Below, in pieces: positions 1 through 34,150 of a stretch of DNA of 34,150 nt. The stretch is from positions 1-34,150 of the forward strand of contig JACROS010000012.1 of assembly GCA_016214325.1 (NCBI GenBank), read 5' to 3'. Both the position numbers and the translations under genes were made by a program. The first letter of the stretch is position 1, and each line of letters starts with the position of its first letter. Source of the stretch: Candidatus Omnitrophota bacterium. GTDB taxonomy: Bacteria; Omnitrophota; Gorgyraeia; Gygaellales; Profunditerraquicolaceae. The notes under the pieces were generated by a model that was not told the DNA's origin, made no database searches, and was given only the letters and a program-made list of their open reading frames with translations.

Positions 1-661
1 TATCAACATCAAAATTCCCGCTTACCTGATATCCACGCCATTTAAGCATTTCAAGAAGCAATTCTGCGTTTTTTATTTCCTGTTCGTTCCAATCATTAAT
101 TATATAGAACACGACTTTATTTTGTACCGGAGAACTTACAACTACTTTAGACAACGCTATTCCCCTAGTTAATGCCACAGAAACTTTTTGAGCTCTTAAC
201 ACGCCATCTAAAACATTTTGATGCAATGTTAATAACTGCGGCAGTCCTTTTTCAGACAAATACGCTGATAATTGAAGTGTTTCGATCATCCCGGGATTAT
301 GACTATCCTCAAAACAAAATCTTCTATCATGAAAAACCTGCGCCAATGATTCGTAAAATATTTTTCTTGCGATATTAATACACTTTCTAAAACTATGGTC
401 GTATATTGACTTAAAGTTTATTTTATCAACAAACTCAGGAACAAAAGTGTCTAATGTTGAGAAAAATACTTTTCTTTGAAATTCTGGCATTTTTGAATCG
501 CCATTAGCAGGAATCGTGCGCAAATTTGCAATCCTATCACAAAGTTTTGCCAGCATAACGATAAAACCGAGATACCCAATAGTATTCACAATTTCACAAA
601 GATACTCCTGTTCTAACTCACCTTTATCCTTAGAGATTAATTTCACTGCCTGATAAATTGC
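1..661 (-). CDS. In-frame continuation of ORF B beyond the TAA (partial, runs off window); completes the RelA/SpoT-type HD domain
   Basis: Manual translation of the same frame gives 220 stop-free codons: AIYQAVKLISKDKGELEQEYLCEIVNTIGYLGFIVMLAKLCDRIANLRTIPANGDSKMPEFQRKVFFSTLDTF...VVVSSPVQNKVVFYIINDWNEQEIKNAELLEMLKWRGYQVSGNFDVD. 'KLCDRIANLRTI' matches the conserved RelA/SpoT HD segment 'KLADRLHNMRTL'; an SSPV linker follows. Confidence 0.8.
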
Positions 662-965
662 TTAACCAAAAATTTCCTTCAGGCTCTGCTCATCAACATC
701 TCCATCCTCCAGACTATCATGCAAAAGGATCACCATTAAAACCATCCAGACCTGCTTTTTGGTAAGATATTTTTGTATCTTAATTTCGCGAAGCGCCACA
801 ATTGCCGCATCAAAAACATGAATAATAGCAGGAGTAAAGTGATCTTTCCGCAATACCCCCATTTGCTTCTTAGCTACAATCTGCACTGCTTTATTAAGCA
901 GCTCTCTTTGGTTTTGAGTAAATTTTATATCTATCCCTCTTAATAACCTCTTAACAAGATTATTA
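480..965 (-). other. RelA/SpoT-type HD domain, interrupted by an in-frame TAA at 662-664
   Basis: DHFTPAIIHVFDAAIVALREIKIQKYLTKKQVWMVLMVILLHDSLEDGDVDEQSLKEIFG-stop-AIYQAVKLISK...FIVMLAKLCDRIANLRTI; compare RelA/SpoT [34 protein letters not shown]...KLADRLHNMRTL. Confidence 0.8.
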
Positions 966-3900
966 GACAACCTGCCGGGATAAAATCGGATACTCTTCTT
1001 TCCTACTTGCAGTTCCTTAGCAAGCACATCCTTTAAAGATTTTAACTCCACATCAACCGGAATCTCTATACCAAACAAATAACGCAAATAACCGCCTTCT
1101 TTTGGCTGAGGGTTCAAAAACGAAACAATATTAACATTATTAGCTTTGAAAAATCCTGTTATATCCACAAACTTCATTATTGAATACTTAGCAGAAAATT
1201 CTATTGTCCATATCTGTTTTAGGCGCTTCGCATATTCTTCATCAAGATAATCTTCAATTAAGGACAGGCTATCCTTTAACATCTCTACACTACTAATACA
1301 TGCGGGCTTAATCAAAATATCCAAAAGTATTTCCCTCTGCTGATCATTCCTTATCAACTGCACGATAATCCCCGCCTCAGGCCCCAGCGCTTCAAACACA
1401 GCAAAAAATATGTCATGCAAGATCCCCGGCCGCTCATGATTAAAAGTAAGCTTAAGCTTAAGTATTAATCGTTTTTCCCTATTTAAATAGCCCAGTTCTG
1501 ATAAGCTGCAAAACTCTTTATTCTTAATTGCAGAGGAAGAAAATTCACGAAGCCTCTGCTTAGCATGAGCGAAAACTTGTGCGCAACCAATTGTTTCTAA
1601 ATCCAAAACTTCTTTTAATATTACGGATAAGATATTTTTCAAGTCTTCGCTAAGCTTATCTTTGTCTTTTTCTAAGATAAAAGCATCCTTAGCATAAAAA
1701 CCCTTAGTATCAACAGGCGCATCAATAATATTAATTCCGAGACTAAAAATACAAGTTGAAATTAAGAAAATCAGCCCGCGCCTATCTGCAGCATAAACCT
1801 CCATTATGGTTTTATTATTATCATCAACAAATCTAACTTCTGTTTGATGCAAACAATTGACGTTGTTTTTCTCAAAACTATACCCATGCAGCAACAAATT
1901 TAAAATACTTATCGCTGCAGCTTCATTCTCCATAAATTGGCTCAAAATTGAGGTGATTGCCGACTCAAGGCAAGATGGCTCAATATGGGAAACATCCTCT
2001 CCGCCAAACTTAACCAGAAAACGGTTGAAGACCAGCCCATTAGCAACAGTTCTTATTTTGGCGCGGTGAATATCATAACCACTTTTTATCAAAATAGCGG
2101 TAATTGCCATTAATATTCCCGGTTTATCCTTGGCCGAAACAACCAATAATTCATCGTACATTTCAAAATCATAATCCCGCTGACGTTTAAAGATCCTCAC
2201 AGCAGCCTGATTTTCATTTATACCCTTTATCAGATCCAACTCATCTCTAATCTTTCTTAAACTATTACCTATTAGATGAACAACACCCACCAAATCAAGA
2301 TACAAATCCACCAACTGCTCACCATAATCATTGCGCAAACCTGAAAGTTTTATTTCTACTTCTTCTTTTGCCAACCGCTGGTATTCTTTATCAGAAACAA
2401 AACTTACAATCCTGCTAAACAAACCAATCATTTGCAACAACTGCCATAAATTACCTGTGTTCTTTACTGGATCAACCGCAACAAAATCACTAAGAGCCAA
2501 TAAATAAAGCATCCTTATTTTGTGTAAATCATTACCCAGAATACTCACAAGCTCTAAGATTGCAGAAGGACTATCTATATCTCTATTATTCATGAAAAAC
2601 GCCTGCACATCTACGTTAGAAACCAAATATTTAATCGTCTCTTGCGAGAGCTCTCCTAGGCCAAGCCTGTTTAAAATAACCGGAATAATTTCAAATGCAC
2701 CGTACTCATCGTGGCCAGGGTCAGTATTTCTTTTGAATCTTCTCACCTTGCCAATATCATGTAACAGAGCAGCCAAACGCAACAAATAAAAATCTTCTGA
2801 AAAACGAACCTGCTTATAAACTTCTGCGATTTTTCTCCTAACATCCCTTCTGACTAAATTTTCCCGTTCACTTAATAATTTATCCGGCATAATTACCCCA
2901 GGCAATTTCTCTAATAATTCAAGAGTCGCCACAGAATGCTCCGCCACATTTCCGTGGATATGCCCCATGCGCCGATCAGACTCAACATTCATCAATTCCC
3001 CAAGTTCAGCAATAACATCAAATAAGCTTCTATCATCATACATTTTCTTAATTTTTCTTGCGATGTTACCAGATAACTTCATAAGTTTCATAAAATTACT
3101 CTCTAATGAAGAAGAGCTAGAATTGACAAACGGCTTTCTATTTTCAAATATTCTTAATAATCCATCCCCCTCAAAGCACCTAATTCCTGCAAATACCAAC
3201 ATTTCATCCATAGTTAAACCGCGTGCCTGAGCCCGCTCTTTAAGAAAATCACTATTAGATCTATTCATAAGAAAACCATCAAATTCATACTTTTGCCAAA
3301 CATCAATTAATACACCATGATCTACAAATATCCGATTCCGGAATAAAACAATCTCCTGCATTATCTTAAAATCTTCAGAACAAGGAACGCCTTTTGCACC
3401 CACAACTACATCAAAATCTGAAGGAGCATCTTTACCAACAATTTTAAAAATCTCCCCAGATTTTATATCAACAAATCTATGATGATTCTTATAATTTCCA
3501 ACCCTCGGCCAGGCTACGCTAGGCACAACAACTAAACGAGCAAAACTGCCAAGCACGCAAACAATATGCACATTATGTATTCTATTAATTTCATTAATAA
3601 ACAAGTTGATGACACCTTGATATGCCTGAAGCGACTCTCGGTAAGCCTGCTGGTTTAAAGCAATCCCAAATTTGCTAAATTTGCCTACTACAAATTCATG
3701 AGTAGATAAACCATCTAGCGCAGAAGACGCTACATCAATAATATTTAACAGACTCACCGGCCCCAAAGCACTTGAAACTGCTTTTGTCAAGACCACCAGC
3801 TTGTGCACCGGTTCAAAAGACTTCCTTCCCACCAAAGGAGCAGCTAAAACATAAGGATGCCAATTAATTAATGTTTCTAAATCATGCGCTCGTGAGCTTT

Positions 3901-6900
3901 TTGTAAAACCATTTTTCGTAAACATTGGCTCCAGCATCACGTCAGCATTAAACAACAATACTATTTCTATATCTGTCTTAGAAATTGCACTTACCCACTC
4001 AAATTTCCAATCCCGGTAAGACGCCTGTTTAGGAGAATATTTTACAAATGCTGATACATCTTTTAAAATCAGCGTCTTAAAATTCTCACTTCTGGCAAGA
4101 GTTAAAATAAATTCAGAATCAAATATGTTATTTTTTAATTCATCCTTTTCAAAAAATTTCAAATTACCTGCTGCAATCCTTAAATCAACGTATTTATTAA
4201 ACAACTCTTCCTGATCTTTATCTTCTATGAATGAAAGAAAAGTAATCTTAGAATGATAATCTTCATCCACAGCAAATATCCTAGTAAATAAAGATGCGAA
4301 CAAATCTAATCCACAGCAAGGCACAAAGACTTTCTCTTTTAAAAGCCCAAGAGAAAACAGATACTTTAAAATCAAGATTTCATCCAGTCCTGCCCAAGAA
4401 AACAATGTATAAGAGTTAGGACGATTAAACCTGCCCCGCCAATTTTGCATGGCATTTCTATGCTTCAATATTGCTCTTTTAATATTTTCTAAACATTCTG
4501 ATCCTGTGCCAATTGAAGAACTAGCTGAATTTTTGGCTGGATTATTCTTGCAAAAATCACGAATTTTTTTGTTTAACGCAATACACTTTTCAATTACTTC
4601 CTCCTTAGCCTGCTCATGCAAATGGTCTTGAGTATGCAGCCTTGCCAAAAACTCTGAAATTACTACTAACCTCTCAGAAAACCTTAAGTACTCATCATAT
4701 CCATGCTCAGAGCTTAATTCTTTAAGCTGGCACCAAAGATTATAAGCCTGACTGACCAAGCCACTTTTTACAATTAGTAATTCTGGCTGTTTAAATTTAA
4801 CTTCTCTTAATAACATAAATAAAGACTCTATTTCTTCATCAAAGACCTGCACAAATCCTATATCTTGCGATACATCATTAAGACTTGCTTCATCAGATCC
4901 ATCCTGCGGATTATAGATTTCTGTAATATCCTCAAATGTAGTTATTACAGCAACCACTTGCCCATTTTCATCTCTAATTATTCTGTCTTCAGTAAGGCCA
5001 GAAATCATTGTTCCGTCTTTTCTTACATATAACCGATAAGGAGATTTTGGCAAAACCTCTCCTCTTAACTTCGCCTGAAATCTTACCCAAGCATCTTCTC
5101 TTTGTTCTTCATCAATAAAATCAAAGATCTTGTTGCCAATCATCTCCTCAGAAGAATAACCCAGTCTATTTAATTCTCCTGAGTTTACATAAAGAATCCT
5201 CCCTTGAGGATCAATTATATGAACCCCTATAGGCATCTTTTCAAAGAAGCTAAAGATATTCTCTCCAATAATTCTTAATACAGCAGAAATTGGGTAACCA
5301 TCTTTTGCAGTTACTGCCGGATAAGCACTTAAATTAACTGCTTCATCGCTTGTCTTAAATTGAGAAACCGTCTGATAAAATAACCTGATCAATCCCCTGC
5401 CCAAAAGATCATTGATCTTGATCGTAGCGCTCAAATCTTCAGCTTCAACATCGCGCTCTGCAGCTTCGATTCTGCGTAATTCTTCATTATCAGGGCCCCA
5501 AAAACTAACATATTCCCTCATTTCATGCAAATGAATAAGCACAGAACATTCTTCAGAAATAGCACTCACTATCTCTATTAACTTATCCATAAAATCGTCA
5601 TATTCTTGATCATCACCTGTTTTGATATTAACAACGATATCAATATCTGACGGCACGGTTTTGTCAAAAGTAGTAAAACCTCCTTTTTGACGCGTTTGAA
5701 TACCAATTCTAGGCAAACCTATTCTTATAGATTTCAATCTAGCAAAACTTCCAATTACTCTTTCAACCTCAACCTTCTCAAGCTTAACAACACGAGTATA
5801 AAAAGTGTTAATGGCCAACTGATATTTCAAGAGAGCCTCTTTTCTGGCTGCATCGTTTAAGGCGATTCCGGTTTCACTAAATTCGCTTTTCTCTGAGCCA
5901 ACAGAAGAAGAACTTGCTTTATTAGCCAACAACCTTTCTTCAATAACCACACACAACTCCTCTAATCTATTTAGATAATAGGGATAAATAGGAAGGTTAT
6001 TTGCTCTAGCAAACTCATCTTCTGCTAATTTTAGTTCCCTAAGTTCATCTACAAGTTCCTGCATCTGAAATACTTTTATATTATTCAAATTGCCGTTTTT
6101 TACAAAAAACTCCAGCCGATCAATAACTGCCAGTTTTACCATTTTGTTTTCATGCGGCAAATTAAGCATTGTTTTTAATAACTCGATTTTGTCAATTTCA
6201 GCGCTATCAATATATGCTATTCTTTCCGAAATAGTAAAACCAACCTGCCAATAAAATAATTTAAGACAAAGATAATCAAACAATTTCAACATAGGGCGAA
6301 CAAGCAAAGCTGCATAAAAAGCAGCAAGCAAAATTTCAGAATTTGTAACCGGGCTGGAAGATTTAAGAATACAATCCGAAGAAAAACTAGTACCTGTAAT
6401 TACCAAACCCTTAGTTAACAATTCACTCCTTGGTATTGTAGAGTTTGATTTTGAAGAAATAAGCATTCCTTTACCTGTATCAAGAACATAGCTGCGCATT
6501 TTTCTTTTCAACAGATACTTTTCATCAACACAAATACAACTAAATGTATTAAGAAATATTTGATCCGCATTTACTATTTCAGGAAAACAATCCTTGCGCA
6601 GCAACTCTGCAATCAACGAAAGGTTAAAATAATCTCCTTTTAACAACAACGGCTTATCCCCAAAATTTAGGCCGCTAACAGTAAAGATGTTTTCTTTACG
6701 ATCAAAAACAGAAATTACAATTTCTTTTTTACCAACCATGAGCCGGATTGGATAACGGGCAAAATCATCTCTTACTGATTTGGCACGCGACCTTCCGCGA
6801 CAAAATAAATAAGCCTTAATTATTTGAGTATGTGTAAAAACAAACCTGGTCCTTAATAAACTCACGACGGAGAGTTTTTCTGAAGGCCTTAAATTAACTT

Positions 6901-11758: not shown

Positions 11759-12860
11759 TATTTAAATATAGCATCGCATCTAAAAGCACTACTAAATTAA
11801 ATTTATCCCAATAAGACGATTTTGTTTCAGAATTATTGCTAATATTAACCACCGCAGGCTGAATAGAAACAGCTGCTGGATTGACTTTTTTATGAGTACG
11901 GGCTCGAATGGGTTTTATTGCCAAAACCTCTAAGGCTTTACCATTTTGTGCTGCATAAGCACGAGAAACAGCCCAATTTAAAACCAAATCTTTTCGAATT
12001 AGCTCTGCCATAAGACCAGAGTCCATTACACAAGCATCGGCAATATTTGCCACAACCATCTTAACCCCATCACGCTCAAATTTAATAACTAACTCTAAGA
12101 TAAACTCTACCTGTTTCCTCTTTAGTTCATTTCTTAGTAAATAATACGCGTTAAAACATTTTCCTACTAAATCAAGGGATAAGCCGCTTCTTTGCGCAAT
12201 TATTCCTTTATGCGGGAACTCTCCGCCACCTACCAATAAATTTATGGTCTCGGTAATTCTCTGCGCCTGCTTACTCTGAATTAATTCATCTAAACTCGGA
12301 TATAGCTTCCGGCAAAGAGCCAATGTATCTATTTTTATTCCCAAATTAAGAATATTTGTAATATGAACCGGATGACCGGCTTCTTCAAGCAGATTAATCG
12401 CCTCCATAATCAAATCAAGCCAAAGATAATTACCATGAGCTAAAACACAAGCATCAACACCTTTATTATTTGTATTCAAAATGTTTAAGACTTCTTTGGC
12501 CCCACAAGAAATATATTCATCTTTTACTAAAATATGCACTGCATCAGGCCAATAGTCATGTGTCCTGCCATATAAAGTATTAATAGTTACGCCAAGGCAA
12601 TTTGCAACGAAGCCCTTTTCCAAATACTCCGGATGATCAGAAAAGTTTTTTCTTAAATAAATCAGACAATTAGCAATTGCTTTAGCGTAGGACCTTTTTC
12701 GCACATCAAGGGCAATTGCAACCCTATCAATAGATAGAGCTAAAACAATACTTGCTCTTTCTAAATATGAATCTGCCGTATTCCAATCAACACCAAAATA
12801 ATCAGCGATAGATTGAACTGGAGGGAAATACATTCTCAATTCATCTTTATTAAACCAATC
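10830..12860 (-). other. HTH-like repeat array crossing the ORF A/ORF B junction
   Basis: Repeated ~50-60 aa units: IADYFGVDWNTADSYLERA; VANCLGVTINTLYGRTHDYWPDAV; IAQRSGLSLDLVGKCFNAYY; in ORF B, IMNRSGLDIGTVIKYRNKHPRV; IAELLQTTEQTVSLHKVRIV; IAGVVRISPRTIARRMKRD. Confidence 0.6.
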
Positions 12861-27800: not shown

Positions 27801-30800
27801 TTTAGTCAATAAAAATGGGAATCCAACTCCTGAAGGAGACATTTCATCATCACTAGCTAATACCAAATCTCTCTCATCTGGGTTAATACTAACGCTAGAA
27901 ATCAAATCTTCAACTGCAGTTCCTTTATGCACATCTGCACGCGTTAAATCGATGCTACCAGATCCTCCATCTTTTATTACTAATGGGCAGTGACCATCAG
28001 CCTCAAGAATGCTATTTGCATAATCAACGAGAAGCTTAATAATTCCACTTATTATTTCTCTCGCAGAATTTCTTTTTGCAAACTTTGCAGATGGGAACAC
28101 TGGTTTTAAAGTAGCCTGCACCACTTTATTTCCACCAATATCTTGGCGCAAATCAATAAATGGCCAGTTTTTGTCTTTCTTTAATATCGCTTCTGCTGTA
28201 TTGGGGTCTAATTGCGCAGTTAATTTTTCTACATATTCTTTGTCTTTCTTCGTCTGTGGATCCCAAGATAGAATGGTAATAAAATCAAGTAATATACTAT
28301 TAATATTATCTAATATATATTGAATTACATCGACACCGTACTGTTTAAATAAAAACTCATTGGCCTCTTTTGCAACCCCATCATACAACGAATCTTTAAT
28401 TAATCTTTTAAGAGTATCCAATTCTTTACTATCTAGCAAACAGCGATTATTCCTAATCGCTGTTAAAACTGACTCCCAAATCTTCCTAACATTATCAACA
28501 ATACCAAAGACGATAACCTTTAACTGCTCTTCGCTTAATGCCCTGGTATAATTCTCATCTCCTATATACTTTCCAGAAAAAATATCAAACCTTGCCTTTA
28601 CACCAGCACCATTAGCATAAATATAAAATCTTTCCAACAAAGAAGGATAAATTAACTCTGTCAAGGAACGACCAAACTGTTTTTGAAATTCATTTCCAGA
28701 TACTACTGCATATGTAATCCCAAAAATAAGCAATAAATTAATATGAAATAACATCCCTGCATCTATGTTTCTATCTGGCATTGCAGTAGTTAAATCCATA
28801 TCTGCAGCGATTATAGAACGGCTAATGATTTTCATCCCAGCAATAATTCTATCATCAACATGAGTTAATCCAGACCTATCAACAAATAGCCCATGCAAGA
28901 CTTGCTCGCCTTTCTTAAAAACAAAAGTTAAATTATCGTTATCAAATACCAGCTCAGTATCTGCAATCGCCAGAACAATAAATAATGCCACATAGTGAAC
29001 CTGATCTGAACTAATACCAAAATTGTTGAGAGCTGAAAATAAGCTATGCAAACCATTCAAAAGGGTTTCTTTGTTTTTTTCATTTTGTAAACGCGCAATT
29101 ATTTCTTTGGTAGCCCTCCAGCTAGAATAAATCTTTGCTTCTCTGGACAAAGAAACAGCTTCTTTTAAAGCAATTCCTTTTCTGCGTAAGAACAAATCTG
29201 GATCTTTCTTTACCATTGCTTCTACGGATAATCTCTGCTCATCAGCACTCCTCCAGTCTTCAATACCGTTAATCAACCCAGCAAGAGAATGCTCTAACGC
29301 TTCTACATTATGAAACCTACATAAATCATGATTCCGAGTAATCTCATTCAAAATACACAACATCTGAGCATAAATTGCTTTCTTAACTAGCTCAACATTT
29401 GCTGGATGCAAGAATAATTGCAGAATTGCACTAGCGTATATTTTATTACCTTCTGGGCCAACAATCCCAGAAACAAGCTCCTCCAGTTGGAAAAATTTAA
29501 AGTTCATTACTGTTTTAACCGGGTTATTTACATCAAAAAGTTCTTGCAACTCCGCAGCATTTAGAACATAAACATATTCAATTGTACATTCCCGGTTATC
29601 CACATATTTAGATGACCCATAAAATACACCAGCAGCATCATAATGCGGCTTACCAACAAACCCAGATCTAACAATCTTTCTTCTGCCAATTTTATTATCT
29701 AAAAGAATAAACCCATTTCTCCTTGGGCAAGAAAGTCCGGTATCAGTACGAAATATTCTTACTGCTGCATCTAAATAATCTTCATCTACATTTAAATGCC
29801 CCGTTGCTGAAGTATCCAACATGCCAAAACGATCATTACGCGTCAGCACAAGAATTTCTCCTGCTTCATTAGATGCAGTGACATGCACAGAAGTATGCCA
29901 TTTCCCCTGACTATGCGCGATATCCCAGCGTACGTTTTCTGCTGTGATTTCTCCAGTTTGCGGATCAACCACATTTAAGAGATGATTTAGCTGATAGGTA
30001 CCTTTTAATATTTCATCTATAAACATCTGTATCCTATTATATAAATCATTCATTTCCCCAATCTCTTTTTTGTGCTTAGGGATACTGGCATCATAATATG
30101 CTGCTGCCCTAGAAAATAAAGCCAATGCTTGTTCGATCTTGCCATCGCAAAACTCACTAAAAGCTACCTCAAACAAAGATTGCATTCTTGCGCATAATAC
30201 AGAAGACTTATCGTTAAGCACAGAAGAACTGGAATTCATTACCACCAGCGCGCCAACTGGGCTTGAGCACATATTGCCGCTATTTGCTAAATCAGCATCT
30301 AAATCACAACAAAAATCTGACATTATTGTTCCTAAGGCCCCGCGATAAACAGAATGATCAAAATCAACCCCCAGCACTTTGCTATAAACTTTAGCAAATT
30401 TAAGCGCAGCAGTGCGTGCATCTACAATAGGAAGCATTCTTCCGGCATTATGCATAATTCTTAATATCCCATTTGGACATTCTTGCATGTATTTTAAAAC
30501 TAATGCTACCCATCTTTGATTTGGATACTGCGATATCTCATAAATGTGCGTACCTTCTAAAGAATACATATGGGCGTAGAATCTTGCTGACAAATCCTCG
30601 AGCGCTAGCTGTAAACGAAATGGAGAAAACGACTCAAACAAATAACCATTGCCATCTTCACCATGATGCAAAACATTAACAATCTGTTGCACCGGCCCCC
30701 CGGTATAACTTGAAACCACAACATTATAAGCAATCATATCTTTTTTGTCTTTCATGCCAGCAGCTTCGTAAGGAGGTATTGATGTCTGTAAAGACGCCTT

Positions 30801-33800
30801 GGCTCCTGGAATTACATGTTTAGAAACCTCTGTATTCCAAATACATAACATAAATCTACCATCCAACCCTTGTTCAATAGCATACCTGTTAAGCTGTCTA
30901 ACCCAACTTTGGCACAAAGGATCATTTTCATGTGCTTTCCCAGCAAAAATAAAATTAAAACCCAAACCTCCTTTATCAGGATCTCCGGTAATATAATAAA
31001 TCCCTCTTAAGTTATCCCTACCAGGTATCTCATTAAAGAAAATGTTATATTTAAAAGCCACTACTCTTCTAGCCTGGACTATTGTAGGCCTACCAGAAAT
31101 AAGCTTTATACCGCTAATTGCAAAAAGATAATCAATCATTCGTTTTTCAGCCATTTTCTTAGCGTACCAAATCTCATCAATATTAAGTAATCTGCCATTT
31201 CTCTCTGTTTGCTCTGGCAGCATCCAGAAAAACGGCCAAATAGAATCTTCAATAGCAAAATACTTTTGGGAAAAATCTGGAAAAGCTTTGCGCATTGCAG
31301 CAAGATGCTCTTTTCCTACCGTACCTACACTAACTGCTACTTGGCTCAAGGCATAAAAAGGATCAAAAGCTATTTTATTGTCTCCAAAGATATTACGCCT
31401 GCTAAGATACTTTTCATATTTATCTTTTGCAATACCTAGAACTATCTCAATAAGATACGGCTCAAAACAAGGAAATGCAGCAGGATCAATTGTATGAGCA
31501 AAACCAATAATGTGCTTCTTAACTTCACTAAAGATACCCTTATCCTTAAAATTATCGTTTTCAAACAAATCAAGAATTATTGAAACTGCAGGAAATGCTT
31601 CGTGAACCTGCAAGATATCAGCTTTAATATTAAATTCTTCTAATAACGCCAAAACTGCGCGGGAATAATAAGCAGACTGTACGAATCTTTCAAAAGAATC
31701 ATGGCCAGAAGGATAAAGACGATTACTTATTGATCCGGAAGGAATTGAAATAAAAGGAACATAAACATCATTGTTTATTCCTTTTATAGAAAGTTTCATC
31801 AAAATAACTTTCGCTTGATACTCCTGGTTTAACAATCTAAACGAAATTAACTTTTCTCCAATTTTCTCCCATTTCTCAAATTCATCTTCATACCCATCAA
31901 ATAGGATAGAATAATCCAGTTGACAGTTATTCACACACGGCGACTTATTCTCCATCTTCTGGTCAATCCCACATTCATATATTGGAAGAGGAAAATAAAT
32001 CTTGGCTCCACAGTAACGTAAAGCTCTTAAAAAGCCTCCGATGAGAATACCCAAACCACCACCCATAGCTCCAAAAAGATTCTTTTCTTTATATCTTTCT
32101 AAAAGCAACTGAGCCTCTACGCTTAGAACAACTACATTTTTATCCTCTAAATTCTCCGGTAATAAATATTCAATCTGTTTATTATCAATACTACTGGGGG
32201 TAATCTTTTTGATTTCTCTAAAGTACCTTTTATCAATAACAAACTCTCTTATGCCAGCTGAATCAACAAAAATAAGCTCAAATTCTATAAAATTGCCTGC
32301 ATCAATTGGATTAATATCCCAAGTATACATCCCTAACGACCCTTCAACTCTATGAGTTGCTGACGTAAGCTGCAAAGTCCATGAATTATTAACTTCAGAA
32401 CCTGATCTAGCTCTGATAAAAATACCTGGCAGATATTGAGCATCTCCTTTTAATTTTAACCGAACACTAAAAGGATCTAATTTAGTATAAGCAAGCTTGC
32501 CTTCATCACGAGGCTTAAAAAGCTTCTCCTCAAGCGCCCAATAAAGCTTACCATCGTAAGGGCTTACATTAAATGGCGTAAATTCAAGATCAAATATTCC
32601 TCTCAATGCTATTAATGCTCTAGAATAATATTCTGAACCCTGTTTTTGAGTACATAAGATACTTAAGAGTTGATCAACAATCCATGCCTTTTCTTCTTGT
32701 GTTTTAGCCTGACCAAAAGACTCTACAATTATTCTAGGAGCATTAGGAGAATTATAATTAAATAACACTTTTAGCACCGAGCGATCCTGCCAAGCATCAA
32801 TATCAGGATGTTTTACGCTGCCAAAAAATTCATTTTTACTTAATATCCAGGCTGCACCAAATCTAAGATGTTCAGACCACTGAACATAATTAGTATCTTT
32901 GTTATCCAAATCCGGCGCATATTCTCTAACAAACAACCTTAATTCTTCAGAAGTAATAAATACCAGCCTTTTAATAACCATCAAGAATGTATTGTTGAAC
33001 CCATCTTGAGCCTTAAAATTTCTGTAAGTTGCATCAGACAAGGCCTTTGCCCACTCAAAAATACTAGAGGAAAGATATAAAGCCTCTTTCAACAAATCAT
33101 TTTCTGTCCATAATGCTGAGCTGGCAGATAAAGAACTACCATTAAAAATACCATTAAAACTACTCAAGATTTCTAGTTGCTGACTTTCGACAAGGATGAA
33201 GAAATATGGGTGGATAATAATTGCGGCAGAATACTCATCAACAAAAATAGCTGCGACAGTGTGTTGGGCAAGAATATAAGAAGCAGTTACAAGAATGGAG
33301 ATTTCTTGCGGCGGAGCATTTTCATTGAAATTCTTGGTTAAACAAAATAAAGTATTTAAACGCTCTTCTAAAATTGCCTGATATCTACCTGAAAGCTGTG
33401 TATACAAAGCAATAAGGCCTTTGTCCTGAGATTCTTTAATTTCTGTGATTGTTAACCCTAATTTTGTATCCCTAAAAGTAGGAGAGAAATTTATATATAA
33501 TCCTTCTGGATAATTTTGTTCATGACCAAATGGCCAATCTTTGGGAACCTGAAGTGGATAACGCGTAAGCCCAGAGCTAGCCTGTCCTTGGGGGTTATTT
33601 ACGACAAGCTTCAAGCTAATCTTGCTTTTTATCTCTTCATCAAGAAAATCGCGAATCTTGGGAAGATGCAAAACCGCCCAAATCACATCAAATAAAAACT
33701 CGTCTAATTCTGGCATATCCGAATAATAAATAGCATTGCAGCAAGAAGCAAACCATTCTGCCAACCAATCAGGAAGCATGCTCTTTTCTCCAACTTCCAT

Positions 33801-34150
33801 AGCCACTAGAAAGATTTTTATAGCATCTTCCAATTCGTTAACATTTACCCAATCGCGCCCTAGCCCACATAAAATGTCAGGATTGCCATTATCAAATTCA
33901 ACAATAAGCCTTTTCAGAATCTCATTTGCCTTATTTTTATCTCCCATGTCAAGTAGCTGCACGCCGCAATTTAATAAAGCAAGAAATACACTTCCTGGAG
34001 GATTAAATTCACGATCATCATGCAAACCATTCTTTATATAGTAATGCACCAGCATTCTAAAAATTTCTGTTAAATTAAAGATAATTGCATGCATAGTCCT
34101 TTCGGTACAGTTTTTTCTCAAAGTGTCTTTTTTTGCCTCAACTGCTGAGA
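11736..34150 (-). CDS. Giant multidomain protein (ORF A), 5' end probably outside the window; ORF track start is TTG at 34121
   Basis: Uninterrupted minus-strand frame of 7461 codons to TAG at 11736-11738; no stop from 34121 back to the window edge (in-frame residues SAVEAKKDT precede the called start). Many recognisable domains joined by Ser-rich linkers. Confidence 0.95.
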   Translation of the reverse strand, partial: SAVEAKKDTLRKNCTERTMHAIIFNLTEIFRMLVHYYIKNGLHDDREFNPPGSVFLALLNCGVQLLDMGDKNKANEILKRLIVEFDNGNPDILCGLGRDWVNVNELEDAIKIFLVAMEVGEKSMLPDWLAEWFASCCNAIYYSDMPELDEFLFDVIWAVLHLPKIRDFLDEEIKSKISLKLVVNNPQGQASSGLTRYPLQVPKDWPFGHEQNYPEGLYINFSPTFRDTKLGLTITEIKESQDKGLIALYTQLSGRYQAILEERLNTLFCLTKNFNENAPPQEISILVTASYILAQHTVAAIFVDEYSAAIIIHPYFFILVESQQLEILSSFNGIFNGSSLSASSALWTENDLLKEALYLSSSIFEWAKALSDATYRNFKAQDGFNNTFLMVIKRLVFITSEELRLFVREYAPDLDNKDTNYVQWSEHLRFGAAWILSKNEFFGSVKHPDIDAWQDRSVLKVLFNYNSPNAPRIIVESFGQAKTQEEKAWIVDQLLSILCTQKQGSEYYSRALIALRGIFDLEFTPFNVSPYDGKLYWALEEKLFKPRDEGKLAYTKLDPFSVRLKLKGDAQYLPGIFIRARSGSEVNNSWTLQLTSATHRVEGSLGMYTWDINPIDAGNFIEFELIFVDSAGIREFVIDKRYFREIKKITPSSIDNKQIEYLLPENLEDKNVVVLSVEAQLLLERYKEKNLFGAMGGGLGILIGGFLRALRYCGAKIYFPLPIYECGIDQKMENKSPCVNNCQLDYSILFDGYEDEFEKWEKIGEKLISFRLLNQEYQAKVILMKLSIKGINNDVYVPFISIPSGSISNRLYPSGHDSFERFVQSAYYSRAVLALLEEFNIKADILQVHEAFPAVSIILDLFENDNFKDKGIFSEVKKHIIGFAHTIDPAAFPCFEPYLIEIVLGIAKDKYEKYLSRRNIFGDNKIAFDPFYALSQVAVSVGTVGKEHLAAMRKAFPDFSQKYFAIEDSIWPFFWMLPEQTERNGRLLNIDEIWYAKKMAEKRMIDYLFAISGIKLISGRPTIVQARRVVAFKYNIFFNEIPGRDNLRGIYYITGDPDKGGLGFNFIFAGKAHENDPLCQSWVRQLNRYAIEQGLDGRFMLCIWNTEVSKHVIPGAKASLQTSIPPYEAAGMKDKKDMIAYNVVVSSYTGGPVQQIVNVLHHGEDGNGYLFESFSPFRLQLALEDLSARFYAHMYSLEGTHIYEISQYPNQRWVALVLKYMQECPNGILRIMHNAGRMLPIVDARTAALKFAKVYSKVLGVDFDHSVYRGALGTIMSDFCCDLDADLANSGNMCSSPVGALVVMNSSSSVLNDKSSVLCARMQSLFEVAFSEFCDGKIEQALALFSRAAAYYDASIPKHKKEIGEMNDLYNRIQMFIDEILKGTYQLNHLLNVVDPQTGEITAENVRWDIAHSQGKWHTSVHVTASNEAGEILVLTRNDRFGMLDTSATGHLNVDEDYLDAAVRIFRTDTGLSCPRRNGFILLDNKIGRRKIVRSGFVGKPHYDAAGVFYGSSKYVDNRECTIEYVYVLNAAELQELFDVNNPVKTVMNFKFFQLEELVSGIVGPEGNKIYASAILQLFLHPANVELVKKAIYAQMLCILNEITRNHDLCRFHNVEALEHSLAGLINGIEDWRSADEQRLSVEAMVKKDPDLFLRRKGIALKEAVSLSREAKIYSSWRATKEIIARLQNEKNKETLLNGLHSLFSALNNFGISSDQVHYVALFIVLAIADTELVFDNDNLTFVFKKGEQVLHGLFVDRSGLTHVDDRIIAGMKIISRSIIAADMDLTTAMPDRNIDAGMLFHINLLLIFGITYAVVSGNEFQKQFGRSLTELIYPSLLERFYIYANGAGVKARFDIFSGKYIGDENYTRALSEEQLKVIVFGIVDNVRKIWESVLTAIRNNRCLLDSKELDTLKRLIKDSLYDGVAKEANEFLFKQYGVDVIQYILDNINSILLDFITILSWDPQTKKDKEYVEKLTAQLDPNTAEAILKKDKNWPFIDLRQDIGGNKVVQATLKPVFPSAKFAKRNSAREIISGIIKLLVDYANSILEADGHCPLVIKDGGSGSIDLTRADVHKGTAVEDLISSVSINPDERDLVLASDDEMSPSGVGFPFLLTKGITVFSGEKTADDSKRVYSDAIGKNILADWFWSQECGLGTEVLATSKLFELIESLFVREVMTLLAYSDYRPVPVMRLLKGELSRRFSSSPVGALVAGRSSSSAVNHDNAQGLARNLSEQFGSWMGKEVEIRFPSKSPNGILSRLVSFKKQSSTRDCRLEIVFFGNKEGFTVFKIIASTSRGDRGYFRGRFSEEKSIFIIEDMFLSPEMRYSGVASKVAELCRPALTTTKHLEIKTTLDLETLVYLISLIDNRQRENSAQANRYERVFIKYSGFKTNQPINICEETRSKDTEDLSRYLTALIKELNINFTLHQINQSLLGKVLSRFGREFSVVLEWHASQERVVLLSNLAENISTTASSAIRYDSTTRKTPSLAVQRSVATRRAKADVLRKERLAEIADIIARFHDEFGRAPTPTEVVLQMPGFTASTSHGKLAALYTWMRKNNLTAIGLGMATTAEFTDEGIKRSFRFSDVRIYIPDMLFERIAVRNIGGPRVNAETMALYQIADRGNEIILRDEGGKIILEYQLGNNNIISEVAKGQNKEAMLIDMTEAFIAFRDQCLGIPHEFGQLRKEAIFQLVKKVGIPVETNNSRNIIFGGDILSLASYYRTTGVNRLNIYRDMTHNSRFMVISDKDNEDNFVVFELRPDGIILSGSGGKLVVQHTAKNNRRGSINNVYYPNNTAEFRDFDNCVEKNEQHVIIPNNRTALLSLLRTRFGFWHDMPLRIGNILGWRASKSRDDREVYPLVLTRPDGKKMLIRVYEQQDNVFTVDGLKFNSEDGQKSLLLKGDYFNLSVIAELVLLGKFMYEGVDLVMASNLFLDTFVFRTLQTASGKVNKIRGYLFDANAGVLHSTRSLVEMAELQETALIIKTSSPVYDLRISRSSTVSSIFGKSIFSRGPPENTLQSSSSLNVNISSYNQGPYCELRNAYDREIAKREFIITSAFFLIAGICLAGQLLFISSLPIFVAYVAYNFDSRYNLVSIQQNKPFILRSYIFVRENILDLSYDRDEYSFIGTLILIWAVVFTINSIVFEKIVDPLDKNLLGHAIDHSLFIFYFIIKSETNYRISLVNKLFDRYLQRLSVQEFNRNDYNDLCVKLIRGDKVGFESKLLFLVNSSSPVGVAFGAEVVYLFVSSVLQLNFKQKGALEFNLGQKEVVLLSVFGDNSKAAASSAIFGKSIFSRGPPETLAILATFFVLGVTCLFSPPFIDESFISIAITIVKKTGNLFYMTGNGVIFPSIAYLVSKICGIYSVRVMNLMLGVLTAGFIYKISQIFSNELVVKDNKSPFFSTLLFSLSFPVLFVSSIGTYDAFAFMLYACGFWQLAKGITQNQNKSLLLAASLLALSAITRYMLQMFILPAVFYAIYSSALNKNKAKVFVSFLLPLGILTGAYWLSSYDHILAAVGHAVNDGAKLSVWQGALTILIKSFLAVPVLSLFAVLGFVIYLIDSIKLKSFRKITNLVFLAGAASLIVVYHIHSANTLTMEKNLYMVSIFASILGGMALNRVRSLLNNTSKIYKYSAVILLVAFLSMHSKAMVYINRYYWPDWRLVVKAVVALNLPVSKVWSTANVGHTISRGIDSVENSCAGNVWYLYTELNKLGFEVDNASPWYGASSEEILAKAAKNNIPVVVGPFLGAKFIEGDVILGYKVVKVINVLPGPRAYIFKISASSSVEEFTQQGYKVIRLKSINNFSSFEVVPERGATIISFRVGGQQILYCPDINQSGGIPVLWPFANRIAGGRFSFKGREIDLRSVPGTKDDGKGNIYHGMARYVAWKVPPLNENRNFVQLSLDTNDYPAIKQFFGRSKITVRYTLLANRLIIETNVANLDQEPMIMSLAFHPWFNTPDKTNWQLEIPANKYWPTENQLPIGSPRSVFDTKFDLRHLQLIGDRTYDDVLTGLSLEKKQIVSTLFHKPSETSIVLTQGTAFQHLVLYVPQDKDAVCLEPQTSATNVFNLQSNQEATPIILGPGKVFNATFEIKVISPEIIDYCGSSSSALRLTPKQKGVIMALLCASLVAVKPFFGKYLTNSGVEQLVIQTSYYLYAFIMLFAYRMLVNLKELVKPASVASNIAKAKASKKELFTICLGIFFSQILSSPLYYFGLKYNSVLINEVIVKSSPIFLVFIAPLFVKELLTFKKLIGVFMAVAGVITVSVFSADKAVVAQISSIGVYLVMASAFTYAVSEIIKKKTRSFIPVSKLLAWAYFVSFPIMGILAKVFVGGNIVIFNFPILMITALSLVTLILSYYALDYLDTSLNKSITNTSPAFVLIFSSILNLQFPHPIAAAGVVLAIGGVALSLRAGKTHSASSSPVGAVVGAVGISEMCPQFGKVAIQVFSWFISRCKAKYLRQSLTFRGWWGTFAALQRDLNNFLPLIMPLTKDFNKALHGSLASSPVFEKKINLVLLAKKYFNIIISALRAFLSYCRFFVFSRQLNEKEINEIKEILRKIRHDYVAPIGTDRTYVQMYFADKSSIKAGLFDALSELYRNLNTITKLAPESSNLDLMFYYYDSVILGALVRLREMVGGIKIDDIKDETWVRNRLDIVNMLVNDGYFIEAGLREHFDALRRSYQKRRITLPLEDKVSKEPYFLADLMRATIVVGQNLNVNEEGEETGINRRTPKGAKNKKTFIFSFISCVSPETVVWVNRHHLDLLMRNLGKNGLKAIPGQFGEIILALYENTKTIVVKYSNSGEYSKEMLLIDAELNRQLVFVKGSSTGDSSVGHSGIGGETIYNVAKEHGWKVRAYNDIKNKKAVTLIIIPKVDCSKPVSSSAVKQAISQDNLFRSLPQPAVLFSALDSRANLPVARVAGGDGIAFKLEDIRSLYIEAYQLFGQGNVTGAVGCFERITRMLIIDELIRARVYQSLGVCYLQSGDSKKAYDNFLMARNTLVVNCNNALFGEISLSLTYANFLLLRDQAKYVEAENVANNLLKYSPDFGIFLIALCEARMFQAKYAQALEPLSLLLKLPLTKNLKVLALTYRARCLAGLGNKTQAEDILVKALTEYVLGNKREEEAASLLGAIFKHSYVDTFIRSANKVIQQAPKQKSSKKVNQNRALEFIRNAIGLKKQCLEEEQRDSEVYFRILREMLNRYIEDLVAQVGDEFIAIADRLIEDAYKKQIQPDEFLVWFFLELTKTVYPAIYGYFGEVILRYLFTNKVNQNSNSEDDDYGIVSTFCCDLSILFPHLTEQETNALFLNHKKYSLDELYNLLNELALNSSARLDLLEVDNISELRLNSTRVFILHKRDGEIIIEFLTQNIWSDALVQKTFALAGDQLIDYLAKNLAEDTEVRLICNDDKTIGLVMKRAELFVDSADQRISVLNEQKKKQELKKKADEALDYLYAFAKKAGLEGLLHNWRLPVLGVRRKGISLVIARGGRSGVQTLVVPDYMALFFGYTGDNRAFGWEEIRNRIAYEVRQEVGSYFGVKVLRGFVQDEEALKEKIREVLESGEIVVGKEKNVGEKKANFLYFYKKEAGRVYVVTVGTMGDVIRLDDIDENDFAAYVLSTSNLFNLDKGKFRLAQEFVEFLRTGRGGLKSQDGHQQNRYLREAEMMIEEFSKGASRIYYRFKDGHTFHVVYTATKRVAKINIFRFFINTSALGQSDFKPEGSLDLTGLFMRNKLPEEAKFTASSGIKHLSQVLESQMQNAYNFIQRGDYNSAIAIYKRVLTTPQLGVVFVVDALQNLGLCYLRQSQYEEAEKYFNQALSAADKLDEDVRNDIRTDILVNINYSLMGLFMQNGDFTAAENVALENSKIPGEGLNSLRQLIHIKLLQEKLSDVIELSGELLPQVDNPYQQAHILEMRAKAYIYGNDRENAITTLEDAVSRCPQFANNFRHLARLYLIETRLTEAVKMLRKLIQLEGKAGVQPLDYQMLILISIANNELDDAHKIIRNDLLLFDKSGVTCFVQYPDEDYMLLLLDETDNKQKLFNVLVNELVAVLSPEKTVAFLETAKEFCVRPEFSAAVEIVLSEIKQSLNTYSQDVAQENTKKKKDKHAKKKENKLVSQALDRLRRLYLIIINPCLGVIAEFFGQEYQPVVDEFINESISKDNLGTQINQQGVLLSSLVRLTERFYPAIREYYGEDCILNILQGLLLVEEDSDLVHRVKLAVNELLGIFVSDLRVDYERLSYEHVSMLVRENKGLGLEELKSKFAEMSEHVEFELVWFVRMVFDPAWERLLAVAKEKGLEDLAKKQYFDAEIAVRNGVQAVCQLGEVSVVVPGVVIIADNFVADVERINEVVENGSIFLGKDEVRHFIAPCERGFVDVVVNADGFVVGVSEIASEKLTAYILRNHAALQIELTTAIIQQIKAKLIFKLDAQSRAYFDRSSKMIYVFNAGKCFSVDLTEEPYSLETALMSEKACKKREYFDITDLFLKGALPVALVASSAVGQDFVQIEQLTGGLFSIINLLQLVPDEQASDFFLKAKRLKEEIKKFRASPNKAGVCLIESGFNELFSAIAQLIRAELTAIIEEAQVKFDLSKLYSMGSRLKEWGIIDETPKGKSLEESAIYRMREFAKIISTDNLVPRKEKQIVDLLIKKLKQFVNTGKIENKSVFKLVRECSLLVQQRRDVITRLQQDRFSKCGFKEGSNSASSALKEMGNTIGFDVEVKSFVGKLSDVMKKDKIIQLAFPDKRRFDHFVYGLAVTFVMKTQSDKYSWWYFTDSTKGELNFILFSKVISWTVGSLRKKGFNPAMIDFCCANAIFTKRFFESASAEIHLNAVLERVKWLRFLSFSFGNSYVERDNFIRLELNYIYEWLNIIRNVLLESNNSNREIGQLRQLDLDLTFFKLNTHAIKLLEFIERLIHEKQLKDKSNLVGPGNNSNFQVDNSQLYSAVEFVVAGFRNNSDLFVLPKIKKVSDACGMALSTFYKNYWEDMIVYLEKLSEDPKCNFLFKRIGIAVLCYRKEYAKAIYMYILYCFSFNSVLTILPGQEEIAKALSLRLGIVSDNLETVLLDLKKLGNPRLNQAIESRLERYYVGRKTAKTNVPIKVLDYFEDWFNKDELRMYFPPVQSIADYFGVDWNTADSYLERASIVLALSIDRVAIALDVRKRSYAKAIANCLIYLRKNFSDHPEYLEKGFVANCLGVTINTLYGRTHDYWPDAVHILVKDEYISCGAKEVLNILNTNNKGVDACVLAHGNYLWLDLIMEAINLLEEAGHPVHITNILNLGIKIDTLALCRKLYPSLDELIQSKQAQRITETINLLVGGGEFPHKGIIAQRSGLSLDLVGKCFNAYYLLRNELKRKQVEFILELVIKFERDGVKMVVANIADACVMDSGLMAELIRKDLVLNWAVSRAYAAQNGKALEVLAIKPIRARTHKKVNPAAVSIQPAVVNISNNSETKSSYWDKFNLVVLLDAMLYLNNDHPVAK
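14690..16945 (-). other. TPR-containing large module, tandem copy 2
   Basis: TPRs (VDALQNLGLCYLRQSQYEEAEKYFNQAL), Lys-rich linker (TKKKKDKHAKKKENK), YPAIREYYGE, VVENGSIFLGKDEV, then YFDITDLFLKGALPVALVASSAV; same block order as copy 1. Confidence 0.8.
16948..19515 (-). other. TPR-containing large module, tandem copy 1
   Basis: TPRs (ARVYQSLGVCYLQSGDSKKAYDNFLMAR), Lys-rich linker (KQKSSKKVNQ), YPAIYGYFGE, VLESGEIVVGKEKNV, then SLDLTGLFMRNKLPEEAKFTASSG. Confidence 0.8.
19545..20540 (-). other. Histidine-kinase-like region (H-box/dimerisation helix plus HATPase_c-like fold)
   Basis: EIKEILRKIRHDYVAPIGTDR (H-box-like), LDLLMRNLGKNGLKAI (N-box-like), VKYSNSGEY (G1-like), SVGHSGIGGETIYNVAKEHGWKVRAYNDIKNKKAVTLIIIPK (G2-like GxSGIGG and C-terminal HATPase pattern). 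Confidence 0.65.
20725..20804. repeat. 80-bp segment bounded by 11-bp perfect inverted repeats, inside ORF A
   Basis: tcccgttgcaa (20725-20735) and ttgcaacggga (20794-20804). Confidence 0.75.
20910..21835 (-). other. EamA/DMT-family transporter-like domain (~10 TM helices)
   Basis: KGVIMALLCASLVAVKPFFGKYL..., PLYYFGLKYNSVLINEVIVKSSPIFLVFIAPLFVKELLTFKKLIGVFMAVAGVITV, SYYALDYLDTSLNKSITNTSPAFVLIFSSI: typical two-half EamA pattern. Confidence 0.85.
21850..22800 (-). other. Aldose 1-epimerase (galactose mutarotase-like) domain
   Basis: SGGIPVLWPFANRIAGGRFSFKGREI, IYHGMARYVAWKV, MSLAFHPWFN, CLEPQTSATNVFNL: family motifs with catalytic His and Glu present. Confidence 0.88.
22810..24258 (-). other. 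Polytopic GT-C-like (PMT/ArnT-like) membrane glycosyltransferase domain
   Basis: Multiple hydrophobic helices after an acidic first loop: PPFIDESFISIAITIVKKTGNLFYMTGNGVIFPSIAYLVSKICGIYSVRVMNLMLGVLTAGFIYKI; C-terminal soluble part. Confidence 0.55.
24256..24295. repeat. 40-bp direct repeat, copy 1 (encodes IFGKSIFSRGPPE on minus)
   Basis: tccggcgggccgcgggagaaaatacttttgccgaatatag; one mismatch to copy 2. Confidence 0.97.
25108..25147. repeat. 40-bp direct repeat, copy 2 (encodes IFGKSIFSRGPPE on minus)
   Basis: tccggcgggccgcgggagaaaatgcttttgccgaatatag; 852 nt (284 codons) from copy 1. Confidence 0.97.
25180..26710 (-). other. Unknown ~510-aa module, copy 1
   Basis: Shares ordered blocks with ORF B 6340-7860: AFIAFRDQCLGI / TFIAFRDRVLGI; IYRDMTHNSRFMVISDKDNEDNFVVFELR / LYRDAQTYSRFLVVMDLNNEKNFIVFEVR; SLLRTRFGF / SLLRTRFVF; SLLLKGDYFNLSVIAEL / PLLLKGDYFNLSLIAEL. 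Confidence 0.9.
26980..27425 (-). other. Possible GNAT-like acetyltransferase domain
   Basis: IEDMFLSPEMRYSGVASKVAELCRPALTTTKHLEIKTTLDLETLVYLISLIDN...RYERVFIKYSGF follows the GNAT order (strand - RxxGxAxxL-like - terminal YxxxGF). Confidence 0.35.
27515..27539. repeat. 25-bp exact repeat, copy 2 (SSPVGALV linker)
   Basis: ccaccagcgcgccaactgggcttga, identical at 30242-30266. Confidence 0.95.
27770..28830 (-). other. HAD-superfamily (phosphomannomutase/sucrose-phosphatase-like) phosphatase domain
   Basis: AADMDLTT (motif I DxDxT), FGITYAVVSGNEFQKQFGRS (motif II region), YANGAGV, IDLTRADVHKGTAVEDLI (motif III Lys), DLVLASDDEMSPSGVGFPFL (motif IV-like). Confidence 0.7.
29480..29930 (-). other. 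Nudix-like (IPP isomerase/Nudix fold) domain with degenerate Nudix box
   Basis: WHTSVHVTASNEAGEILVLTRNDRFGMLDTSATGHLNVDEDYLDAAVRIFRTDTGL fits G-x5-E-x7-R-x-U-x-x-x-x-G-U but lacks most catalytic Glu residues. Confidence 0.65.
30242..30266. repeat. 25-bp exact repeat, copy 1 (SSPVGALV linker)
   Basis: ccaccagcgcgccaactgggcttga, identical at 27515-27539. Confidence 0.95.
30330..32160 (-). other. Divergent GT-B glycosyltransferase domain, alpha-glucan phosphorylase/glycogen synthase-like
   Basis: GAMGGGLGILIGGFLRALRYCGAKIYFPLPIYE (GGLG N-terminal motif), ADILQVHEAFPAVSIILDL, FIFAGKAHENDPLCQSWVRQLNRYA (FAGKAHP-like), PPYEAAGMKDKKDMIAYNVVVSSYTGG (compare EASGT.GMKA..NG). Confidence 0.6.
33790..33995 (-). 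other. TPR-like helical repeats near the N-terminus of ORF A
   Basis: CGVQLLDMGDKNKANEILKRLIVEFDNGNPDILCGLGRDWVNVNELEDAIKIFLVAMEVG has TPR-like periodicity. Confidence 0.5.

What the first reader, a model, noticed from the sequence alone, without database searches (positions are those of the whole stretch)
1..34150. The whole window may be the interior of one giant gene (>=34 kb, >=11,380 codons)
One strand, no intergenic gap, no promoter- or terminator-like break. The frame is open at both window edges and the only two interruptions each cut through a domain. The architecture (many unrelated enzymes and regulators joined by SSPV/SSAI linkers) resembles giant proteins reported in Omnitrophota. 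The combination of glycan metabolism, transport, histidine-kinase-like, GlnD-like and RelA/SpoT-like parts in one chain would be unusual.
Basis: inference. Interest (0 to 1): 0.85.

Follow-up and report, generated by a model that had tools for sequence, protein, structure and literature searches.

The report
Giant linker-jointed bacterial polyprotein gene
This DNA is an inner stretch of one enormous gene from an uncultured Omnitrophota bacterium, a protein built like beads on a string from dozens of different enzymes and regulators joined by one recurring five-residue linker, which suggests (unproven) that it is exported and cut into separate proteins.

Summary
The window is a whole 34,150-base contig of an Omnitrophota MAG, read in one direction end to end. 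It has two blemishes: a frame change near 11,740-11,760 and an in-frame TAA at 662-664. In a congeneric genome the TAA position is read through inside a 21,950-codon ORF, and break positions are not shared between the two species. A third genome holds a complete relative: one ~52,450-codon gene (157 kb) broken only by a scaffold gap. Giant Omnitrophota ORFs are already published.

What appears new: modules are separated by a tight motif, [S/A/V/T/G]-S-S-[A/P]-[V/I/L]. The window has 22 copies (0.5 expected); ordinary genes of the genome show no enrichment. The motif is kept at protein, not DNA, level. No recognised domain envelope checked is crossed by it, and blocks shuffled between species end at it. 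Giant genes of this kind across the phylum start with a conserved export-signal-like segment plus a C39 papain-like peptidase domain (Cys and His invariant in 49 of 49). Two giants also carry a trypsin-fold protease with an intact triad.

Best reading: an exported, self-processing polyprotein of effector-like enzymes. Export and cleavage are inferred, not shown.

The parts
11739..34148 (-). ORF A, 7470 codons, open at the 5' (high-coordinate) window edge
665..11761 (-). ORF B, 3699 codons, ends at in-frame TAA 664-662
2..661 (-). ORF C, same frame as B after the TAA, open at the 3' (low-coordinate) edge
11736..11761 (-). Break 1: frame change, 23-nt overlap, no ribosome-binding site before ATG 11758
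662..664 (-). Break 2: in-frame TAA inside a RelA/SpoT-type HD domain; the congeneric genome has Lys in this column
33111..33125 (-). Linker ASSAL
30258..32081 (-). Alpha-glucan phosphorylase / glycogen-synthase-like module
   Evidence: TIGR02094 E=3.8e-9
29727..29897 (-). NUDIX-like domain (weak, below curated cut-off)
27528..27542 (-). Linker SSSPV
27489..27503 (-). Linker SSSAV
26721..26735 (-). Linker ASSAI
25188..26723 (-). Unassigned module, 65% identical to G011; a diverged relative lies at 6395-7843
25185..25199 (-). Linker TSSPV
24453..24467 (-). Linker SSSPV
24291..24305 (-). Linker ASSAI
23637..24071 (-). PMT_2 glycosyltransferase membrane module (absent at this point in G011: insertion between linkers)
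   Evidence: Pfam E=2.4e-6
21882..22730 (-). Aldose 1-epimerase module, putative catalytic His/His/Glu present (motifs HGMAR, AFHPWFN, VCLEPQ)
   Evidence: Pfam E=1.1e-37; motifs read by eye in the translation
21828..21842 (-). Linker SSSAL
20928..21830 (-). EamA-type transporter module, flanked by linkers on both sides
   Evidence: Pfam E=2.1e-14
20889..20903 (-). Linker SSSPV
20640..20654 (-). Linker ASSPV
19509..19523 (-). Linker SSSAV
16710..16913 (-). Tetratricopeptide repeats
14679..14693 (-). Linker ASSAV
14058..14072 (-). Linker ASSAL
11549..11563 (-). Linker TSSAV
10496..10510 (-). Linker VSSPI
9188..9202 (-). Linker SSSAI, start of an inserted cassette
8507..9190 (-). Methyltransferase-like module inserted between two linkers relative to G011 (G011 is contiguous here and carries this module elsewhere)
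   Evidence: methyltransferase assigned from the LLDLGSGNGVFDLGL motif, no family hit
8504..8518 (-). Linker VSSPI, end of the inserted cassette
6347..6361 (-). Linker SSSPV
4919..5230 (-). PAS sensor domain
   Evidence: PF13426 E=5e-14; TIGR00229 E=9e-20
3716..3778 (-). Two linkers VSSAL and ASSAL
1607..2797 (-). GlnD-like (PII uridylyltransferase C-terminal half: HD + ACT) module
   Evidence: TIGR01693 E=4.3e-34, partial
1526..1540 (-). Linker SSSAI
185..1510 (-). RelA/SpoT-type HD module, split by the TAA; homologues in G011, G095, G078
125..139 (-). Linker VSSPV

Best explanation
The window is the interior of one giant Omnitrophota gene encoding a modular polyprotein. SHOWN: complete, unrelated protein modules, under purifying selection where comparable, are strung together in one frame and separated by a fixed peptide motif [small]-S-S-[A/P]-[V/I/L]; modules are gained, lost and moved between species at that motif; giant ORFs of this kind elsewhere in the phylum start with a highly conserved signal-like segment (FKSSFKAWIRVVAFIVVAVFLPEQVAQA-VEYDW) followed by a C39-type papain-like peptidase domain. 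INFERRED: the protein is exported through the inner membrane; it is cut at the linkers into individual enzymes. The motif resembles P5-P1 of an elastase/HtrA-type chymotrypsin-fold protease, such as the Trypsin_2 module inside two of the giants; the C39 head is the other candidate and may instead release the head or pair with a transporter. MORE SPECULATIVE: the released enzymes (glucan and sugar metabolism, (p)ppGpp- and GlnD-type signalling, HTH/sigma-like, methyltransferases, membrane carriers) act outside the producing cell, probably in prey or host cells. For the enzymes checked, the genomes also have canonical stand-alone copies.
For: One-gene reading: G011 21,950-codon ORF and its read-through of the window's TAA; own contig C22 reads through a G011 break; G095 complete 157-kb gene; dN/dS about 0.18-0.28 in eight of nine blocks. 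Linkers: 22 in the window vs 0.54 shuffled (max 5), ordinary ORFs 10 in 234,866 aa vs 7.65 shuffled; 51/82/47/29 four-residue matches in own/G011/G095/G078 giants vs 2.9/4.3/5.4/2.5; information confined to 5 residues; Ser codons from both TCN and AGY sets with mostly distinct DNA; 0 of 23 domain envelopes crossed vs 5.4 expected, P=0.002; homology-block ends within 10 aa of a linker 29% vs 5%. Head: Pfam C39 E=1.1e-9, PDB 6mpz by sequence E=0.019, C39 transporter models in 10 of 12, AlphaFold model matching 6mpz with Foldseek prob 1.00 and TMt 0.72, Cys113 and His204 invariant in 49 of 49 and an Asp/Glu 16 residues after the His in most, the same spacing as His105-Asp121 of CvaB (PMC3335142). 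204 of 384 genomes phylum-wide match the domain, heading ORFs up to 57,756 codons. Trypsin_2 in own contig C84 (ORF of 1405 codons) and in G095's 37,731-codon ORF, H-D-S present by motif. Stand-alone PFK, glycogen synthase and PGI exist besides the modules.
Against: No cleavage, secretion or expression data. The usual C39 oxyanion Gln is replaced by an invariant Trp in these heads. SSAV/SSPV is not the double-glycine site that C39 enzymes cut. Trypsin_2 was not found in several giant-bearing genomes (G078, G068, G069, G031, G175). The head domain was not found in the window's own 84%-complete genome, and in G011 it sits on another contig (C14). Linkers are sparser outside the window's genus and the motif drifts (ASPL/SSPL in G078 and G095). 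Several modules are multi-TM, which complicates export of the rest.
Confidence: 0.55

Rival explanations
1. One giant gene whose product stays whole: an extracellular or membrane-bound multi-enzyme coat or scaffold, with linkers acting as flexible or O-glycosylated hinges rather than cleavage sites.
For: Published view of the 39,678-aa Velamenicoccus giant as a surface coat, with peptides increased in attached cells (PMC10066038). Ser/Ala/Pro next to small residues also resembles bacterial O-glycosylation contexts (own knowledge). No cleavage data exist.
Against: A generic hinge would be S/T/P/G-rich and of variable length; here information is confined to five positions with a fixed hydrophobic last residue and little constraint outside. 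A protease domain heads the family.
Confidence: 0.27
2. Not one gene: two or three large adjacent genes in an operon, with the frame change and the TAA as real boundaries.
For: The assembly as given does contain a stop and a frame change; G011 and own contigs C22 and C84 also show frame breaks; a weak hairpin follows break 1.
Against: The TAA splits a conserved domain that G011, G095 and G078 read through. Where a G011 break falls, own C22 is continuous, so breaks are not shared. No Shine-Dalgarno at either restart. G095's only break is an N gap.
Confidence: 0.08
3. The linkers are DNA-level recombination or mobile-element scars that happen to be translated; the fusion has no protein-level purpose.
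For: Modules do move at linkers; some long linker repeats in G011 are near-identical DNA; a 45-nt repeat with 93% identity occurs in the window.
Against: Most linker copies have different DNA, and serine codons from both unlinked codon sets are used at near-background rates. Modules and frames are under purifying selection.
Confidence: 0.05

Closest known systems
Giant ORFs of Omnitrophota, incl. the 39,678-aa protein of Ca. Velamenicoccus archaeovorus LiM (PMC10066038) and the up-to-85,800-aa proteins cited in PMC12057145
   Same: Same phylum, ORFs >20 kb, poorly annotated, TM segments. A single-contig genome (G175) has the same head domain on a 39,687-codon ORF, probably LiM itself (inferred from size and length only).
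   Different: Published accounts that could be read stress adhesion, a coat or polysaccharide degradation and few domains. The passages read do not describe the fixed linker motif, module shuffling at it, or the conserved signal + C39 head. The West-Roberts preprint could not be read.
Omnitrophota 'gigantic proteins' noted in the lipocone survey (PMC12419801)
   Same: Mix of polysaccharide enzymes, signalling domains, methylases, papain-like peptidases and TM segments; predation role suggested.
   Different: The passages read do not describe linkers, a defined N-terminal C39 head or polyprotein processing.
C39 peptidases of bacteriocin exporters (PCAT1, CvaB, ComA)
   Same: Fold, Cys-His-Asp order, His-to-Asp spacing of 16.
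   Different: No ABC transporter attached; signal-like segment in front; invariant Trp where the oxyanion Gln is expected; heads a giant chain; no double-glycine sites known here.
MARTX / polymorphic toxins (named for comparison only)
   Same: Large exported chain with several effector-type domains and a built-in protease that may free them.
   Different: Dozens of housekeeping-type enzymes rather than toxin domains; C39 (and sometimes trypsin-fold) rather than the caspase-like protease; far larger.
NRPS/PKS megasynthases
   Same: Very large modular bacterial enzymes.
   Different: No condensation, adenylation, ketosynthase or carrier domains in the pieces scanned.

Membership tests
Omnitrophota giant ORF | ORF longer than 20 kb | tested here: met
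   ORF A alone is 22.4 kb, open at its 5' edge
Omnitrophota giant ORF | Phylum Omnitrophota | tested here: met
   Congeneric genome G011 has its head domain on JACQXK010000038.1, titled Candidatus Omnitrophota (100% match)
Omnitrophota giant ORF | Transmembrane helices in the product | tested here: met
   About 24 hydrophobic TM-like segments in A+B by Kyte-Doolittle; EamA and PMT_2 modules
Giant gene headed by signal + C39 domain | N-terminal signal-like segment and C39 domain on the same ORF | tested here: inconclusive
   5' end not in the window; no hit in the own genome (84% complete). Present on the G095 gene that shares modules with the window (across an N gap) and in G011 on another contig
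C39 peptidase (head domain of the relatives) | C39 fold | tested here: met
   Pfam E=1.1e-9; Foldseek prob 1.00 to 6mpz
C39 peptidase (head domain of the relatives) | Catalytic Cys, His and Asp | tested here: met
   Cys113 and His204 in 49/49; position 220 Asp 38, Glu 7, other 4
C39 peptidase (head domain of the relatives) | Oxyanion-hole Gln six residues before Cys | tested here: not met
   Invariant Trp107 instead; in CvaB Q26A had only minimal effect (PMC3335142)
C39 peptidase (head domain of the relatives) | Proteolytic activity | not testable with these tools
   needs biochemistry
Polyprotein | Several complete, unrelated proteins in one reading frame | tested here: met
Polyprotein | Recurrent site motif between the products | tested here: met
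Polyprotein | Cleavage at these sites | not testable with these tools
   no proteomic data available here
MARTX-type toxin | Caspase-like (C80) autoprocessing domain and RTX repeats | tested here: not met
   None among Pfam hits in the window or in the G011 and own-genome pieces scanned
NRPS/PKS | Condensation/adenylation/ketosynthase/carrier domains | tested here: not met
   None among Pfam/NCBIfam hits

The most novel reading that the evidence does not exclude
Omnitrophota make secreted polyproteins of tens of thousands of residues. A signal segment and C39 protease lead a chain of dozens of swappable enzyme cassettes, each bounded by a universal [small]SS[A/P][V/I/L] cleavage site, so that one gene delivers a whole set of metabolic and regulatory effectors to prey. 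This would be a new class of bacterial effector system, comparable in logic to viral polyproteins.
Probability: 0.3. Interest if true: 0.95.

Novelty: new variant of a known kind. Interest (0 to 1): 0.74.

Why it matters
Genes of 100-200 kb are among the largest known and their purpose is an open question. A specific linker motif, cassette shuffling and a conserved protease head turn 'what do giant genes do' into a testable claim: they are exported polyproteins cut into many effectors. It also gives annotators a rule for splitting these proteins into modules that existing tools can recognise, and a phylum-wide marker (the head domain, matched in 204 of 384 genomes sampled) for finding them.

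Tried and rejected
The search for related loci with a variable part of the window gave nothing. Contig-end overlaps to extend the window: none. DNA-level repeat explanation of linkers: rejected on codon diversity. Stand-alone loss hypothesis (that the giant holds the only copy of central enzymes): rejected for PFK, glycogen synthase and PGI. An apparent GNSGG protease motif in G011 ORF D is part of a repeated linker, not a protease. PDB sequence searches with single window modules gave no hits. SSPL/SSPI matches inside EamA are not linkers, so the five-residue form was used for the window counts.

Full report
WHAT IS THERE. The window is a complete contig (C51) of a 1.48-Mb, 106-contig, 84%-complete MAG. 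It is coding on the - strand throughout: ORF A (7470 codons, open at the edge), ORF B (3699 codons), and the continuation C (open at the other edge). Codon-usage scoring gives one strand in all windows and a single frame change near 11.9 kb. There is no tRNA or Rfam element and no excess of promoter-like sites.

ONE GENE OR SEVERAL. In a congeneric genome (G011) the homologous modules lie in a single ORF of 21,950 codons that runs off its contig. The window's TAA falls between two halves of a RelA/SpoT-type HD domain and aligns with a Lys codon in G011; G095 and G078 also read through. Conversely, a G011 frame break falls where own contig C22 is continuous, so breaks are not conserved boundaries; sequencing or assembly error, or recent mutation, is more likely. 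The G011 homologies place own contigs C84, C51, C22 and C48 (about 22,300 codons held) in one giant gene, though no contig ends overlap. G095 has a relative from start to stop: 181,556 to 24,196, about 52,450 codons, interrupted only by 100 Ns. It lies just downstream of genes with T2SSF, T2SSE and secretin domains (a Tad/type II-like locus) and upstream of a PilZ gene and a sugar-binding-protein gene of an ABC transporter. Conserved blocks have dN/dS of about 0.18-0.28, except one whose dS could not be estimated.

ANATOMY. Modules recognised in the window: glucan phosphorylase/glycogen-synthase-like, NUDIX-like (weak), PMT_2 glycosyltransferase, aldose epimerase, EamA carrier, TPR, PAS, GlnD-like HD+ACT, RelA/SpoT-like HD, plus a methyltransferase-like module judged by motif only. 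The G011 and own-genome parts add GT5 glycogen synthase, a nucleotide-sugar dehydratase, PFK, CofD, PPDK, trypsin-like, abhydrolase, DHH, PHP, HTH and sigma-region-4 modules. Motifs read by eye suggest intact active sites in the GT5, the dehydratase, the PFK and the window's epimerase; one HD domain in G011 has lost its HD motif. Canonical stand-alone PFK, glycogen synthase and PGI genes exist in the genomes checked, so the PFK and glycogen-synthase modules are extra, divergent copies.

THE LINKER. A five-residue motif, [S/A/V/T/G]-S-S-[A/P]-[V/I/L], separates modules. The window has 22 copies in 11,384 residues against 0.54 in shuffles (max 5); ordinary ORFs of the genome have 10 in 234,866 (7.65 shuffled). 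Flanking positions carry little information. Serine codons are drawn from both codon sets and most copies differ in DNA, so the peptide, not the DNA, is conserved. None of 23 domain envelopes contains a linker (5.4 expected, P=0.002). With linkers masked, ends of homology blocks fall within 10 residues of a linker in 29% of cases against 5% at random. The methyltransferase-like cassette at 8507-9190 is inserted between two linkers relative to G011, which has it elsewhere.

THE HEAD. The G095 giant begins with a signal-like segment and a domain found in 58 of 108 family genomes and 204 of 384 sampled across the phylum (weaker matches included), heading ORFs of up to 57,756 codons; 45 of 49 fetched copies run open to the end of the fetched DNA. 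The domain is a C39-type papain-like peptidase: Pfam E=1.1e-9, C39 transporter models, AlphaFold model (mean pLDDT 74, core mostly above 90) matching PDB 6mpz with probability 1.00. Cys113, His204 and Ala28 (the predicted residue before signal cleavage) are invariant in 49 sequences. The His-to-Asp spacing of 16 equals that of CvaB (PMC3335142). The oxyanion Gln is replaced by an invariant Trp, so activity is likely but not assured. In G011 the head is followed by about 3,000 residues of repeat-like, transglutaminase-like and glycine-rich membrane-like sequence before the first clear run of linkers (features judged by eye). A single-contig 2.0-Mb genome (G175) has the head on a 39,687-codon ORF, which fits the published 39,678-aa Velamenicoccus protein; this identity is inferred, not checked.

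MECHANISM. The best reading is an exported polyprotein. If the last linker residue is P1, then P2 Pro/Ala and P1 Val/Ile/Leu match elastase/HtrA-type proteases (own knowledge), and a trypsin-fold module with an apparently complete triad sits in own contig C84 and in the G095 giant. It was not found in several giant-bearing genomes, so the head C39 or a host-cell protease remain candidates. Steps shown: gene continuity in relatives, module structure, motif, head fold. Steps inferred: export, cleavage, action on prey. The chain from the window to the head rests on G095 (same gene, across an N gap) and on G011 (head on another contig); it was not seen in the window's own genome.

KNOWN OR NEW. 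Giant ORFs in Omnitrophota are published (PMC10066038; PMC12057145 citing a preprint that is not held), and a mixed domain content was noted in PMC12419801. In the papers that could be searched, neither the linker rule nor the C39 head nor polyprotein processing was found. I therefore call this a new variant of a known kind, with a minority chance that it is a new class of effector system.

Noticed in passing
own genome contigs C64:7941-10571, C78:2023-9056, C65:17860-23589, and C14, C27, C74, C77, C87, C92, C101: A second family of linker-joined proteins: signal peptide, conserved ~350-residue N-domain (WVNLRPDS.., TLTRPWIVPGE..), varied modules (kinase, FHA, methyltransferase, isomerase-like) and a conserved C-tail (GGIDFR..., ECC..., LLVVLEAG). 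The conserved ends have no Pfam match; about ten copies, several cut by contig ends.
   Followed up: partly
   Followed up: no
L173 (G011 contig 14), residues about 1,900-3,250 of the ORF: Between the C39 head and the first clear run of linkers lies a transglutaminase-like domain and a long stretch of glycine-rich membrane-like segments, possibly a translocation part.
   Followed up: no
window 24256-24300 and 25108-25152: A 45-nt repeat (93% identical) encoding IFGKSIFSRGPPE flanks modules and recurs in G011 as protein; a second, longer linker type.
   Followed up: partly
L219 (bin titled Dehalococcoidia) and L220 (Elusimicrobia): The head C39 domain also appears on ORFs of 1,795 and 1,030 codons in two MAGs not labelled Omnitrophota; misbinning or transfer.
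   Followed up: no
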